Assembly (NCBI GenBank): GCA_017408025.1
Contig: JAFQVJ010000009.1
Span: 1-60,194, forward strand
Direction of reading: 5' to 3'
DNA length: 60,194 nt
Source of the DNA: Lachnospiraceae bacterium
GTDB lineage: Bacteria; Bacillota; Clostridia; Lachnospirales; Lachnospiraceae
Below, piece after piece: positions 16,213 through 60,194 of this stretch (positions are counted from its first letter, which is position 1; every line of letters starts with the position of its first letter). The notes under the pieces were generated by a model that worked only from the letters and a program-made list of their open reading frames with translations, was not told the DNA's origin and searched no databases. A program made the position numbers and the translations under genes.

Positions 16213-18242
16213 TATGCGCTCACCATCCCAACTGATTGTAATTCAATATTTGATTCTATCTCATTGTATGAGATAACAATTAAATCCCTGATATAATCCT
16301 GTGTCATCTTCTTAAAATACATTCTGACAATAGGAGAAGTAACGACAATTGGTACTTTACCCATACCCTCCATCTTTTTAACTTCCTGTTCCAATGCATT
16401 TATAATTTTTCGCTGTCTATCAGGGTCTAATGAGATATATGAGCCCTGCTCTGTCTGCTTAACACTTCCCATTATCTCCTGCTCATTCTTTGGATCCAAA
16501 GTCACAACACTTGTTGTCTCATTTGGTGTAAAGAATTTCGCACTAATAGCTCTCTTGAGACTCTGTCTGACATATTCTGTCAATACATCCGTATCTCTAG
16601 TTACTGCCGCATGGTCTGCAAGTGTTTCAAATATGGTCAGCAAGTCTCTTATGGAGATACCTTCTCTTAAAAGATTCTGCAACACCTTTTGTATCTCACC
16701 AATACCGAGAAGCTTAGGTATAAGTTCCTCAACAAGTACTGGGTTATTTTCCTTAACGTTGTTAACAAGATTCTGTACATCCTGTCTTGTAAGAAGCTCA
16801 TCAATATGACTTCTGACTACTTCTGTAAGGTGTGTAGCTATAATTGAAGGTGGATCAACTACAGTATAACCAAGTGATTCCGCCCTCTCTCTCTGACTTT
16901 CAGTAATCCACAGTGCTGGGAGATGGAACGATGGTTCAAATGTAGGAATACCCGTAATTTCTTCCTCAACCATACCTGGATTCATAGCCATATAGTGGTC
17001 AAACAGAATTTCTCCCTCACTTACCTGTACACCCTTAATATTTATAATATACTGATTTGGATTCAACTGTATATTATCTCTTAGACGAATAATTGGCACA
17101 ACAACACCAAGTTCCAGTGCAATCTGTCTTCTGATCATTACAACTCTGTCAAGAAGATCACCACCCTGATTTACATCAGCAAGTGGTATAATTCCATAAC
17201 CAAAGTCTAATTCAATAGGATCAACCTGTAGAAGAGATGTAACATTCTCTGGTCTTCTGATTTCCTCTGCCTCAGCCTGACCATCATTGACTTCCGTTTC
17301 GATATCTCCAACAGCCTGACGATCTCGCATTTTGTTTCCTAAAATAATACATGCAATACCCATTGGTACAAATATCAGTATTGGTAATTCTGTTGCAACA
17401 CCAAGCAAACATAATGCCGCACCAACAGCCCACATAACCTTTGGCATCTCAAAGAGCTGTGATACAACCATATCTCCCATATCCATATCCTTTGAAGCCT
17501 TTGTTACAAGGATACCTGTGGCGAGAGATATAAGAAGGGATGGAATAGAACTTACAAGACCATCACCTATTGTAAGTATTGTATATTCACCTAATGCATC
17601 TGATATCTCCATTCCGCCCATTACACCCATTACAAGGCCACCGACGAAGTTGATAACAGTAATCATCAGACCTGCTGTTGCATCTCCCTTTACGTACTTT
17701 ACAGCACCGTCCATAGAACCAAAGAATGAAGACTCAGCCTGAAGCTTTTCTCTCCTCTCTCTAGCCTGTTGGTCTGTTATTGCACCTGTGTTCAAATCTG
17801 CATCAATAGCCATCTGTTTACCTGGCATAGCATCCAGTGTAAATCTTGCTGTAACCTCAGCAACTCGCTCAGAACCTTTATTGATAACCATAAACTGAAC
17901 AATCAGCAGGATTACGAAAACTATTACACCGATAATAAGATTACCGCCACCTACAAATTCACCAAATGTTCGTACAACCTCACCTGGGTCACCACCATTT
18001 AAGATGAGCTTTGTAGATGATACGTTAAGAGATATTCTGAATAACGTTGTTAAAAGCAGCAATGTTGGGAACGATGACATATTCATCGCTTCCTTTGAGA
18101 ATACTGAATTAAACAGTATTACAAGTGCTACTGCCATATTAAAAGCAAGCAAAATGTCAAGAAGAGTATTTGGCAAAGGAATAATTAAGAATACAATTGC
18201 ACAAAGTATATATAATCCCAAGCCTATATCTGTCTTTTTCAT
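16212..18242 (-). CDS. flhA: flagellar export gate protein FlhA
   Basis: 676 residues: eight probable membrane helices in the first half, the conserved FHIPEP-type loop region (TARFTLDAMPGKQMAIDADLNTG) and a large cytosolic C-domain that forms the nonameric export ring. The DUF1778-free, standard C-domain contains the LxxxLLxExVxIRDL pattern (LQNLLREGISIRDLLTIFETL). It works with FlhB, FliP, FliQ and FliR. Confidence 0.97.
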   Translation of the reverse strand: MKKTDIGLGLYILCAIVFLIIPLPNTLLDILLAFNMAVALVILFNSVFSKEAMNMSSFPTLLLLTTLFRISLNVSSTKLILNGGDPGEVVRTFGEFVGGGNLIIGVIVFVILLIVQFMVINKGSERVAEVTARFTLDAMPGKQMAIDADLNTGAITDQQARERREKLQAESSFFGSMDGAVKYVKGDATAGLMITVINFVGGLVMGVMGGMEISDALGEYTILTIGDGLVSSIPSLLISLATGILVTKASKDMDMGDMVVSQLFEMPKVMWAVGAALCLLGVATELPILIFVPMGIACIILGNKMRDRQAVGDIETEVNDGQAEAEEIRRPENVTSLLQVDPIELDFGYGIIPLADVNQGGDLLDRVVMIRRQIALELGVVVPIIRLRDNIQLNPNQYIINIKGVQVSEGEILFDHYMAMNPGMVEEEITGIPTFEPSFHLPALWITESQRERAESLGYTVVDPPSIIATHLTEVVRSHIDELLTRQDVQNLVNNVKENNPVLVEELIPKLLGIGEIQKVLQNLLREGISIRDLLTIFETLADHAAVTRDTDVLTEYVRQSLKRAISAKFFTPNETTSVVTLDPKNEQEIMGSVKQTEQGSYISLDPDRQRKIINALEQEVKKMEGMGKVPIVVTSPIVRMYFKKMTQDYIRDLIVISYNEIESNIELQSVGMVSA

Positions 18243-38045: not shown

Positions 38046-38083
38046 GCACAGAAAGTTTCGAGAACTTTCCTATACAACAAAAA
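38046..38083 (-). repeat. post-terminator motif, copy 1 (after codY)
   Basis: Right after the terminator T-run comes GTTGTATAGGAAAGTTCT, followed by a second small hairpin (GAAAGTT/AACTTTC, with outer G-U pairs to about 38046). A 23-nt core (38061-38083) is identical to 57178-57200, also directly after a terminator. Confidence 0.7.
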
Positions 38084-57155: not shown

Positions 57156-57184
57156 GAAGGGGGAGATTCCCCTTCTATTTTTGT
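57155..57184 (+). terminator. terminator after the 96-aa gene
   Basis: AGAAGGGG (57155-57162) pairs with CCCCTTCT (57169-57176), followed by ATTTTTGTT. Confidence 0.85.
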
Positions 57185-57200
57185 TGTATAGGAAAGTTCT
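57178..57200 (+). repeat. post-terminator motif, copy 3
   Basis: A 23-nt sequence identical to the minus strand of 38061-38083 (after codY), in the same position relative to a terminator. No second small hairpin follows here. Confidence 0.7.
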
Positions 57201-57506: not shown

Positions 57507-57535
57507 TTTACTTTCAGGTAAAATTTTGATACAAT
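57507..57535 (+). promoter_or_regulatory. possible promoter of TIR gene
   Basis: TTTACT (57507-57512), a 17-nt spacer and TACAAT (57530-57535), about 54 nt before the start. Confidence 0.45.
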
Positions 57536-57588
57536 TACTTATTATTCTAAGCAACATGCGAACAAATGATGAAAGGCAGGGTACTTTA

Positions 57589-59055
57589 ATGTATATATTT
57601 ATATCCCATTCTTCGAAGAATGCTGATATCGCACAGGAATTGTGCAACGTTATGGAATCAAATGGTTCACAGTGTTTTATTGCTCCTAGAAATATCCGTT
57701 CTGGCTATGAATACGCTGCTGAGATATTAGATGGAATAGACCGTTCTGATGCAATGCTTCTTGTATTATCTAAGGAGATTAACAATTCACCTCATGTCTT
57801 AAGAGAAATAGAGCGAGCTGTAAGCAAATCAATACCTATCATTGTGTACAAGCTTGAAGAGGTTACACTCTCTAAATCTATGGAATATTTCCTTATGACA
57901 CATCAATGGCTCAATGCAGAAAAAGGCAATCATGAACATTTGCTTAAATGCATTGAAGATTTAAAAAATAACACTTCAACTGCTATATTTGCAGCCGCTC
58001 CACTGGACGTAAAAAAACGCAAATCAAAAAAACTTCCTTTAGTTATAGGTGTTGCTGCTACAGGTGCTATAGCATTGATAGCGTCGCTTTTTATAATATT
58101 ATCAAGCTCTGATAAAGAAAATGACACCACCAACACTACAGAAAAAGGTAGTCAGGTTGTAAATAACACAACAACGGATGATAATAAAACAGATTCCAAG
58201 GAAGATTCTACAAAAGAAAATACTACCGAGAATAATAACGCTTCAAACTATGACATCAAATTAGGAGATACTGTTGTTTTCGGAAACTATAATGATGCTG
58301 ATATATATTGGAAGGTTATCAAGATATCAGAGGATGGCACTGAGGCGGTTCTTATATCTAGAAACCTTTTAAGCTTCAAGGCATTTTCTGCTGCTGAAAG
58401 CGGAAATTGTCACTCTGATGGTAAGACAAACTATATTGGTTCAGACTCAGAAGTACTTGCAACTGACTTTGAATTGCAATCATATGTTTGGGGAAATAGT
58501 TCATGGTCATCCTCTACTATTAGAGCATGGCTTAACTCAGACCGTGATTACGTAGAGTATGAAGGACAACGTCCTATAGCCAATGCAATGTCCGACAATA
58601 AAAATGGTTACAACTCAGAGCCTGGATTTTTATATAACTTTAGCGACGAAGAATTAGCTGCCATCAAAGAAACCACTATTGAAACAAAGGGAAACGCCCT
58701 TTCTGATGAAGACATAATTACAACAACAGATCGCGTATTCCTCTTATCAATAGATGAACTTCAATGGCTTAAAGACGCAAAAGTTCCTCTCTATGTAACC
58801 CCTACCGGCGAAGCTATCGACAAAAACGAATCACCTTGGTACCGTGAATATTGCCTTGAATATTATCATACTGATACATGTTTGTGGTGGTTACGAGACC
58901 CTGTAGATGGTAAATCATCAGAATGTTACGCTGTCAGCTACGGCGAAAACACTCCTGATCTTTACTACCCATATATTGTTTCTGTTGAGGATTTTGGCAT
59001 CCGCCCAGCAATAACAGTTGATTTAACATCAGATTGCATCAAAGTAGAAAAATAA
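57589..59055 (+). CDS. TIR-transmembrane-DUF6273 protein
   Basis: 488 residues: a TIR domain (1-128; YIFISHSSKNADIAQEL, then SPHVLREIERAV with Glu73 as the likely NADase glutamate), a basic stretch, one membrane helix (about 149-172), a Thr/Asn/Asp/Lys linker (174-220) and a C-terminal DUF6273-like domain (222-486) ending in CLWWLRDP and FGIRPAITVDL. The TIR should be cytosolic and the C-domain outside. Start chosen at MYIFIS, after AAAGGCAGGG; upstream Mets are possible. Role unknown; NAD-cleaving defence or signalling are options. Confidence 0.85.
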   Translation: MYIFISHSSKNADIAQELCNVMESNGSQCFIAPRNIRSGYEYAAEILDGIDRSDAMLLVLSKEINNSPHVLREIERAVSKSIPIIVYKLEEVTLSKSMEYFLMTHQWLNAEKGNHEHLLKCIEDLKNNTSTAIFAAAPLDVKKRKSKKLPLVIGVAATGAIALIASLFIILSSSDKENDTTNTTEKGSQVVNNTTTDDNKTDSKEDSTKENTTENNNASNYDIKLGDTVVFGNYNDADIYWKVIKISEDGTEAVLISRNLLSFKAFSAAESGNCHSDGKTNYIGSDSEVLATDFELQSYVWGNSSWSSSTIRAWLNSDRDYVEYEGQRPIANAMSDNKNGYNSEPGFLYNFSDEELAAIKETTIETKGNALSDEDIITTTDRVFLLSIDELQWLKDAKVPLYVTPTGEAIDKNESPWYREYCLEYYHTDTCLWWLRDPVDGKSSECYAVSYGENTPDLYYPYIVSVEDFGIRPAITVDLTSDCIKVEK

Positions 59056-59250: not shown

Positions 59251-59670
59251 ATGAGAAAAAAATTTTTAATTTGCGGTCTTACCGGTTGGTGTATGGAAAT
59301 TATATTTACCGCATTTAACGCTTTCCGCCACCGGGAATTTAAGTTGATGGGACAAACATCCATATGGATGTTCCCTATTTACAGTATGGCAGCCCTAATT
59401 TACCCTTTTTATAACTTCATCAAGTGGTTGCCAACATTTGCACGAGGTGTAATCTACTCCATAGGCTTTTTCATCTTTGAATTTTTAAGTGGCACCTTCC
59501 TCAAAAAACACAATATCTGCCCATGGGATTACAGCGACGCCAAAAGCAATATAAAAGGAGTCATACGCTTGGATTTCGCACCAGTATGGATAGTCGCCGG
59601 ACTAATCTTCGAGCGCATACTAATTCCTGACAAAAAACATGCTCCCCACAAGAGACTGTCGCACTTTTAA
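59251..59670 (+). CDS. CmpB-like putative ABC transporter permease
   Basis: 139 residues, three to four membrane segments. TGWCMEIIFTAFNAF, GQTSIWMFPIYSMAALIYP, and CPWDYSDAKSNIKGVIRLDFAPVWIVAGLIFE are hallmarks of the Firmicutes family named putative ABC transporter permease (CmpB). No ATPase partner lies nearby. Function unproven in the family. Weak ribosome site. Confidence 0.8.
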   Translation: MRKKFLICGLTGWCMEIIFTAFNAFRHREFKLMGQTSIWMFPIYSMAALIYPFYNFIKWLPTFARGVIYSIGFFIFEFLSGTFLKKHNICPWDYSDAKSNIKGVIRLDFAPVWIVAGLIFERILIPDKKHAPHKRLSHF

Positions 59671-59689
59671 CACCACAATTCATATTATA

Positions 59690-59737
59690 GGAAGATTGTG
59701 TATCCTCGTTATCGCGGAGACTGCAATCTTCCTTTTT
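59690..59737 (+). terminator. terminator after CmpB-like gene
   Basis: GGAAGATTG (59690-59698) pairs with CAATCTTCC (59724-59732), followed by TTTTT. Confidence 0.85.
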
Positions 59738-59811
59738 ATGCCCTCAAAGCTTTAATTATCCTCTACACCGATTATCTGTGCATATTAAAAAACACTTGCT
59801 TCGAGAACTCG
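59738..59811. other. spacer before giant hairpin
   Basis: AT-rich, no ORF. CGAG-AA-CTCG (59802-59811) forms a tiny palindrome at the hairpin edge. I see no convincing promoter. Confidence 0.3.
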
Positions 59812-60175
59812 GAACTTTCTAAACGCCCTTTTTCGAAGAGTTTATACAGTTCGTCTTTTATATGTCAGACAATATTGCTACAGGCGGTGTGCCATAGTAA
59901 GAACATACCATTGAAAAAATTGCGTGATTTTCTTAGCAGGTTCAGGCGAGAATAACCTAGCCCCGCATAATCACTGTCTGAATGAGCTCGCCCCCGAATT
60001 TCAATGGGGCGAGCGAGTGAGTTTGATTAGCGGGGCTATAATAAAGTTTTCTTGGCGAACCTGCAAGAAAATAGCAATTTTTTCAGGTATGTCTTACTAT
60101 GGCACACAGCTGTAGCTATTGTCTGCCTTCATAAAAGACGAACTACTTATTCGAAAAAGGGCGTTAAGAAAGTTC
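59812..60175. repeat. giant imperfect hairpin (about 364 nt)
   Basis: The arms 59812-59994 and 60006-60175 are inverted copies of each other, with an 11-nt loop (59995-60005). I count 13 helices, 127 Watson-Crick pairs: 59812-59820/60167-60175, 59822-59837/60150-60165, 59848-59861/60131-60144, 59866-59873/60118-60125, 59877-59883/60110-60116, 59887-59901/60093-60107, 59903-59909/60086-60092, 59912-59922/60075-60085, 59927-59934/60065-60072, 59936-59943/60057-60064, 59958-59966/60030-60038, 59968-59973/60024-60029 and 59986-59994/60006-60014. Small internal loops separate them. No protein gene. It could be a non-coding RNA or a foldback mobile element; no direct target-site repeat was identified, and pairing may extend slightly past 60175. 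Confidence 0.85.
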
Positions 60176-60194
60176 ACGAAACCTCTCAATGCGT

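What the first reader, a model, noticed from the sequence alone, without database searches (positions are those of the whole stretch)
59812..60175. Giant irregular hairpin of about 364 nt without a gene
Two arms of roughly 180 nt pair along their whole length in 13 helices (127 hand-counted pairs, up to 16 in a row), split by small and mostly near-symmetric internal loops, with an 11-nt apex. Fresh foldback insertions would be near-perfect; here the loops look tolerated while long helices stay exact, as in a structured RNA. The ends (GAACTTTCT/AGAAAGTTC) echo the post-terminator motif elsewhere in the window. I know no named RNA class or element with this shape. Options: a long double-stranded non-coding RNA, a MITE-like foldback element, or a recombination/replication site.
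Basis: partly seen in the sequence, partly recalled or inferred. Interest (0 to 1): 0.85.

Follow-up and report, generated by a model that had tools for sequence, protein, structure and literature searches.

The report
Giant foldback DNA repeat with conserved tip
The hairpin is one copy of a non-coding, palindromic repeat scattered through this bacterium's genome; relatives with the same hairpin tip occur in other Clostridia, and their two arms change together, apparently as DNA rather than as an RNA.

Summary
The hairpin is real (-200.7 kcal/mol, z -23), but the given ends are too short: both arms continue outwards and the right one is cut by the contig end. It is one of at least 14 dispersed copies in its genome (14 distinct right-hand flanks), mostly downstream of genes (21 of 25 flanks). 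Four other species of the genus carry relatives. Three (about 600 nt) align end to end with it (46-59% identity) and keep pairing by two-sided changes. The fourth (about 290 nt) shares the tip and shows 8-bp target duplications. A tip model hits seven other genera, with the tip inside the main local palindrome at 7 of 11 places. A minimal tip pattern occurs in 60 of 391 genomes of the class, up to 56 copies each; 27 of 30 loci tested are foldbacks. G-U pairs are rare and no commoner than A-C mismatches at strand-neutral pairs, which points to pairing kept as DNA, not RNA. No Rfam family matches. Best reading: a widespread non-autonomous foldback mobile DNA element with a conserved tip; its enzyme is unknown.

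The parts
59652..59674 (.). Outer stem of the element, left side (GAGACTGTCGCACTTTTAACACC); its mirror image would lie beyond the contig end. The stop codon of the upstream ORF (59251-59670) lies inside it.
   Evidence: Same sequence type at the C67 copy (L009). 17 of 25 flanks in this genome carry another outer stem, GTTGCACAATTATA with up to 3 mismatches.
59675..59692 (.). AT-rich inverted end of the element (ACAATTCATATTATAGG); conserved in G004, G006 and G007
   Evidence: matched with up to 4 errors in 23 of 25 flanks
59689..59738 (+). Hairpin with T-run facing into the element (AGGAAGATTG...CAATCTTCCTTTTTATG); looks like a terminator with a long loop
   Evidence: Inverted repeat I5; T-run motif in 25 of 25 flanks with up to 3 errors.
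59755..59811 (.).
59812..60175 (.).
59949..60047 (-). Conserved hairpin tip (motif AACTC - stem - CTCAAACAG on the minus strand; this copy has TCAGACAG)
   Evidence: Covariance model R1, 85.9 bits; near-identical copies of the same genome were in the training set
60176..60194 (.). Right arm continuation, cut off by the end of the contig
   Evidence: contig C30 is 60194 bases long

Best explanation
It is one copy of a non-coding, whole-length palindromic mobile DNA element (foldback or MITE-like) that spreads in trans and whose folded single-stranded DNA form matters. Shown: many dispersed copies in unlike gene contexts, inverted ends, 8-bp target duplications in one congener, centre-deleted derivatives, arms that change together, and a hairpin tip with conserved unpaired bases in many Clostridia. 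Inferred: the element is moved by an enzyme encoded elsewhere that recognises the tip and its unpaired bases when the strand is folded (logic like integron attC sites or REP hairpins). It settles downstream of genes, where its own inward-facing terminator-like hairpins keep insertion harmless. The arms stay complementary because one arm is recopied from the other (template switching, or each mobilisation cycle), while selection keeps the unpaired recognition bases.
For: Copies. Congeners G004, G006, G007 (600-606 nt between ends; own genome 642) and G002 (about 290 nt). Target duplications in G002, 9 copies, k=8, permutation p 0.002; an 8/8 direct repeat flanks a 38-nt hairpin remnant in G006. 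Derivatives. Pairing kept: structure of one copy tested on another, 71-92% standard pairs against at most 52% slid, 8 tests; 59 of 109 and 66 of 205 pairs with two-sided changes, 0 of 500 shuffles. DNA level: G-U 146 of 3746 pairs against 494 of 3865 in folded shuffles; G-T 12, 16, 16 against A-C 12, 14, 25 cells at strand-neutral pairs in three alignments. Tip. Gene context: 21 of 25 flanks have a gene pointing at the element.
Against: No enzyme and no autonomous relative was identified. No target duplication in the own genome (5 copies), and in G002 only k=8 of the four lengths tested is significant (k=7, 9, 10: p 0.44, 0.29, 0.26). The one empty-site comparison (purA-deoC) is not clean because deoC is inverted in the own genome. 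Overall, unpaired positions are not more conserved than paired ones; only particular loops are. In forward-strand structures G-T exceeds A-C in two of three alignments (32 to 20, 61 to 16, 20 to 26), although those structures favour G-U by construction. Homology of the G002 element to the 600-nt ones outside the tip is not above shuffles in most comparisons.
Confidence: 0.6

Rival explanations
1. A long structured non-coding RNA, dispersed as a multicopy gene, whose rod is selected as RNA.
For: Strong covariation and conserved unpaired motifs; the RNA fold is far below shuffles.
Against: G-U pairs are few and match A-C in number at strand-neutral pairs; the opposite strand folds about as well (-195.7 against -200.7); T-run hairpins face in from both sides; promoter-like sites are no more than expected (4 against 3.4); no Rfam family.
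Confidence: 0.15
2. An ordinary MITE with a passive hairpin: arms are kept alike only by template-switch mutation, and nothing in the rod is selected.
For: Two-sided changes exceed one-sided ones (602 to 107 and 547 to 149 row-pair differences), as expected from arm-to-arm copying; template switching is known to make and repair stems (PMC8794818, abstract and opening text seen).
Against: The tip motif and certain asymmetric loops persist across species and genera, and the length between ends stays at 600-606 nt in six full copies of three species. Passive copying should erase asymmetric loops.
Confidence: 0.17
3. A host-maintained bidirectional terminator or REP-like extragenic palindrome, not a mobile element.
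For: Position downstream of genes (21 of 25 flanks), T-run hairpins at the ends, high copy numbers in some genomes.
Against: No copy seen in three of eight genus genomes (only some of their single stem matches were folded), target duplications in G002, far longer than a terminator needs.
Confidence: 0.08

Closest known systems
Bacterial MITEs and small mobile repeats (Correia/NEMIS, RUP, ERIC, YPAL; PMC2229807, abstract and section list seen)
   Same: Non-coding, dispersed, intergenic, inverted ends, able to fold; target duplications here in one congener
   Different: About 290-700 nt and palindromic over nearly the whole length; arms covary; a tip motif is shared across genera; no parent transposon found
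REP/BIME palindromes and RAYT transposases (PMC3733652, abstract and section list seen)
   Same: High-copy palindromes lying mainly downstream of genes; proposed mobilisation in trans by an enzyme that sees a hairpin
   Different: REPs are 20-40 bp with GTAG or CGTC tags (abstract); this rod is about ten times longer and its conserved bases are at the tip. The tags were not searched for here.
Integron attC sites (PMC2727003, abstract and section list seen)
   Same: Structure kept rather than sequence; unpaired bases in a folded DNA strand could choose the strand
   Different: No cassettes seen; attC box motifs and an integrase were not shown; much longer
CTXphi-type Xer integration at dif (recalled; PMC3089051 seen only in a search listing)
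   Same: The AT-rich ends resemble a recalled Firmicutes dif consensus and pair with each other in the folded strand
   Different: At up to 3 mismatches that consensus found no chromosomal dif in 8 genus genomes, only one element end, so the likeness is unsupported

Membership tests
MITE | Non-coding, multicopy, dispersed | tested here: met
MITE | Terminal inverted repeats | tested here: met
MITE | Target-site duplication | tested here: inconclusive
   G002: k=8 p 0.002 over 9 copies, other lengths not significant; own genome: none in 5 copies
MITE | Ends shared with an autonomous transposon | tested here: inconclusive
   End and stem patterns in 8 genus genomes showed only foldbacks, remnants and single matches; no transposase was searched for
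Structured non-coding RNA | Covariation beyond controls | tested here: met
Structured non-coding RNA | Pairing kept at RNA level (G-U tolerated, A-C not) | tested here: not met
   Strand-neutral pairs: G-T 12, 16, 16 and A-C 12, 14, 25 (one row of the third alignment was misplaced)
Structured non-coding RNA | Stable transcript | not testable with these tools
   No RNA-seq available
Known Rfam family | Match at gathering score | tested here: not met
   Window 0 matches; 20 related loci only a tRNA; element best E 7.3
REP | Palindrome of 20-40 bp | tested here: not met
   About 290-700 nt
REP | GTAG or CGTC tag at the foot | not tested
   -
Integron attC | R/L boxes and an associated integrase | not tested
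   -
Xer-integrated element | Ends equal to the host dif site | tested here: inconclusive
   No chromosomal dif recognised in 8 genomes with a recalled consensus

The most novel reading that the evidence does not exclude
A previously unnamed superfamily of single-stranded-DNA-hairpin mobile elements, widespread in Clostridia: giant rods with a conserved tip (AACTC - stem - CTCAAACA) and a second asymmetric loop (CTA(A) / CTTAACG), moved in trans by an undiscovered enzyme that reads unpaired bases in folded DNA, with each cycle recopying one arm from the other.
Probability: 0.35. Interest if true: 0.88.

Novelty: new variant of a known kind. Interest (0 to 1): 0.75.

Why it matters
It shows how strong covariation, usually read as proof of a functional RNA, can mark a structure that is kept as DNA; the G-U against A-C comparison is a simple test that others could apply. 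If the tip is an enzyme's recognition site, a large set of unannotated intergenic palindromes in gut Clostridia becomes one explainable family, and the enzyme could be sought by matching gene presence to the 60 positive and 331 negative genomes.

Tried and rejected
Xer/dif: the element ends resemble a recalled Firmicutes dif consensus, but a search of 8 genus genomes at up to 3 mismatches found no chromosomal dif, only one element end in G006. Kept as a weak idea.

Phage or plasmid origin: no match by blastn in plasmids or phages; two core patterns gave 0 viral contigs; the stem CTTCAATTCGCAAAGTR gave 13 viral contigs that I did not examine. The short tip AACTCGCTWCGCTCAAACA gave 73 viral contigs; only 16 of 72 scored are foldbacks.

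Family-wide blastn with a G006 copy found nothing in 397 genomes; blastn is too weak for this. The covariance model was better.

The Roseburia MAG foldback L027 looked alike by eye, but the model did not find it (E up to 10), so I do not count it. L034 and L038 hold other large palindromes, not counted.

Of the 11 places that the model found in other genera, the best local palindrome spans the tip in 7 (L335, L336, L338, L339, L343, L346, L348). In L337 and L344 the best one lies beside it; L340 and L341 score low (its output was cut in the middle).

Skipping-rope RNA (recalled name): no Rfam match; one paper mentioning it was seen in a listing only.

Rows and errors: in alignment A5 the row G002_C4 has wrong coordinates; A5 is used only for one of the three G-U/A-C counts. 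The single genome-contig scan went to a window protein, so that collection was not searched for the element.

Full report
OBSERVATION. The window is contig C30 of a 2.35-Mb draft genome in 71 contigs. The kin are probably Lachnospiraceae: the best protein relative of one window gene lies in a Lachnospiraceae MAG; the genome itself is unnamed. The stretch 59812-60175 folds as one irregular rod, -200.7 kcal/mol, z -23. It is longer than given. The flanks of other copies are conserved and themselves inverted repeats: the arm goes on, then comes a hairpin with a T-run facing the element, an AT-rich end, and an outer stem. The whole C53 region of 765 nt folds at -366 kcal/mol. The terminator scan does not list the T-run hairpin, because its loop is longer than that scan allows.

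COPIES. blastn finds 48 matches in 24 loci of the own genome, many at contig ends. Counted by distinct right-hand flanks there are at least 14 copies: 13 listed as right flanks, plus C41, whose copy is inverted. Centre-deleted forms exist: core 211 nt (C9), 165 nt (C68) and no core (C7:4815-5107). The outer stem alone occurs as a small hairpin at C43, C28 and C46. By a simple ORF rule 21 of 25 flanks have the nearest long ORF pointing at the element and 4 do not; neighbours include purA, deoC, pdxT and rho family genes. At purA-deoC, G004 and G002 lack the element, but deoC has the other orientation there, so this is not a clean empty site.

RELATIVES IN THE GENUS. G004 has a full copy (69% identity over the core) and a deleted one. 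G006 and G007 carry full foldbacks with the same AT-rich ends; five of them measure 600-606 nt between the ends, G004's 602, the own C53 copy 642, and one G006 copy with another apex 484. G006 has two more full copies with the stem CTTCAATTCRCAAAG. G002 has a shorter type of about 290 nt in that stem: nine copies were studied, one of them centre-deleted. In G001, G003 and G005 I saw none (of their single stem matches I folded only one in G001 and one in G005). G000/G004 and G006/G007 copies align end to end when the former are reverse-complemented: local alignment scores 293-384 in that orientation, 232-272 in the other, shuffles at most 234. The G002 type is not above shuffles in most comparisons, but the tip model, trained without it, finds it in 7 of 9 loci, E 8e-7 to 1e-3.

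TARGET DUPLICATIONS. In G002, direct repeats adjoin the ends: 8/8 (C22a), 9/9 (C42), 7/7 (C4), 9/10 (C25), 7/8 (C23c). Over all 9 copies, k=8 gives p 0.002 by permutation; k=7, 9 and 10 give 0.44, 0.29 and 0.26. A 38-nt remnant in G006 has 8/8. The own genome shows none in 5 copies.

PAIRING. Structure taken from one copy and tested on another gave 71-92% standard pairs, against at most 52% with partners slid, in 8 tests; 15-44 pairs changed on both sides. A structure from G006/G007 tested on G000/G004 gave 256 of 406 cells (63%), against 40-52% slid. RNAalifold over five copies of four species: 188 pairs, 92 with a two-sided change. Eight copies inside one genome of another genus (G762): 109 pairs, 91.6% of cells paired, 59 with two-sided changes, slid 37-45%, 0 of 500 shuffles. 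Seven G006/G007 copies: 205 pairs, 95.0%, 66 with two-sided changes, slid 40-43%, 0 of 500. These structures were derived from the same rows, so the slid control flatters them; one search is the independent test. Unpaired positions are not better conserved overall, but certain loops are: the tip RTAACTC / CTCAAACAG, a 7-nt bulge AATAAAC, and a loop TA / CTTAACG.

DNA OR RNA. Over 21 folded elements 146 of 3746 pairs are G-U (3.9%), against 494 of 3865 (12.8%) in folded shuffles. Two-sided differences outnumber one-sided ones, 602 to 107 and 547 to 149. At pairs predicted on both strands, G-T against A-C cells are 12 to 12, 16 to 14 and 16 to 25. With structures predicted on one strand they are 32 to 20, 61 to 16 and 20 to 26, but there G-U is favoured by construction. 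23 tRNAs in the same loci show 41 G-U of 510 pairs; ARAGORN's drawing cannot show A-C. An RNA under selection should keep G-U over A-C on one strand; this does not. Arm-to-arm template switching gives such two-sided changes (PMC8794818, abstract and opening text seen).

DISTRIBUTION. The tip model R1 (12 sequences) gave 0 hits in 80 loci of 1.37 Mb and hit 8 of 397 genomes of the family at E up to 0.1, the own one included; one of the others has four copies. In 7 of the 11 places outside the own genome the best local palindrome spans the tip. The pattern AACTCGCN{2,32}GCTCAAACA occurs in 60 of 391 genomes of the class; by my sum of the table there are 371 matches, against 9 for the pattern read backwards; the largest counts are 56, 50 and 30 per genome. 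Of the 30 genomes for which a locus was returned, 27 loci are foldbacks above the 99% point of 931 random positions, 21 above the maximum. The own genome has 0 exact matches to this pattern, so the class-wide set is linked to it through the model and by likeness of the tip, not by this pattern.

READING. Mobile, non-autonomous, palindromic DNA whose fold matters as DNA. Shown: copies, ends, derivatives, concerted arms, conserved tip. Supported in one species: target duplications. Inferred: an enzyme in trans that reads the folded strand, and arm recopying. No description was found in the papers searched: listings only; the long tip strings had no occurrence in the 20 papers listed of 161, so this is weak evidence of absence. 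Abstracts and section lists were seen of PMC8794818, PMC2727003, PMC3733652 and PMC2229807; attC box features and CTXphi are otherwise recalled.

Noticed in passing
window 57526-59055 +: Protein with an N-terminal TIR domain (PF13676) and a C-terminal DUF6273, possibly a defence or signalling protein
   Followed up: no
window 59251-59670 +: 139-aa ABC_trans_CmpB-like membrane protein whose stop codon lies inside the element's outer stem
   Followed up: no
window 38054-38080 and 57170-57199: Motif GAACTTTCCTATACAACAAAAA next to terminator-like sequence; TTGTTGTATAGG also stands beside the element or its outer stem at C68 and C46
   Followed up: no
L017, last 13 bases (G000 contig C12 end): The contig ends with AGATCGGAAGAGC, which looks like an Illumina adapter remnant (recalled) right inside the element
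   Followed up: no
L454 (G609), L464 (G600), L466 (G645): Tip motifs in tandem at spacings of about 200-350 nt
   Followed up: no
L034 around 16280-17080; L038 1-772; L027 5168-5968: Other very long intergenic foldbacks, not matched by the tip model
   Followed up: partly
L383, L386, L388 and other viral contigs: AACTCGCTTCGCTCAAACA recurs in viral contigs in a fixed non-foldback context
   Followed up: no
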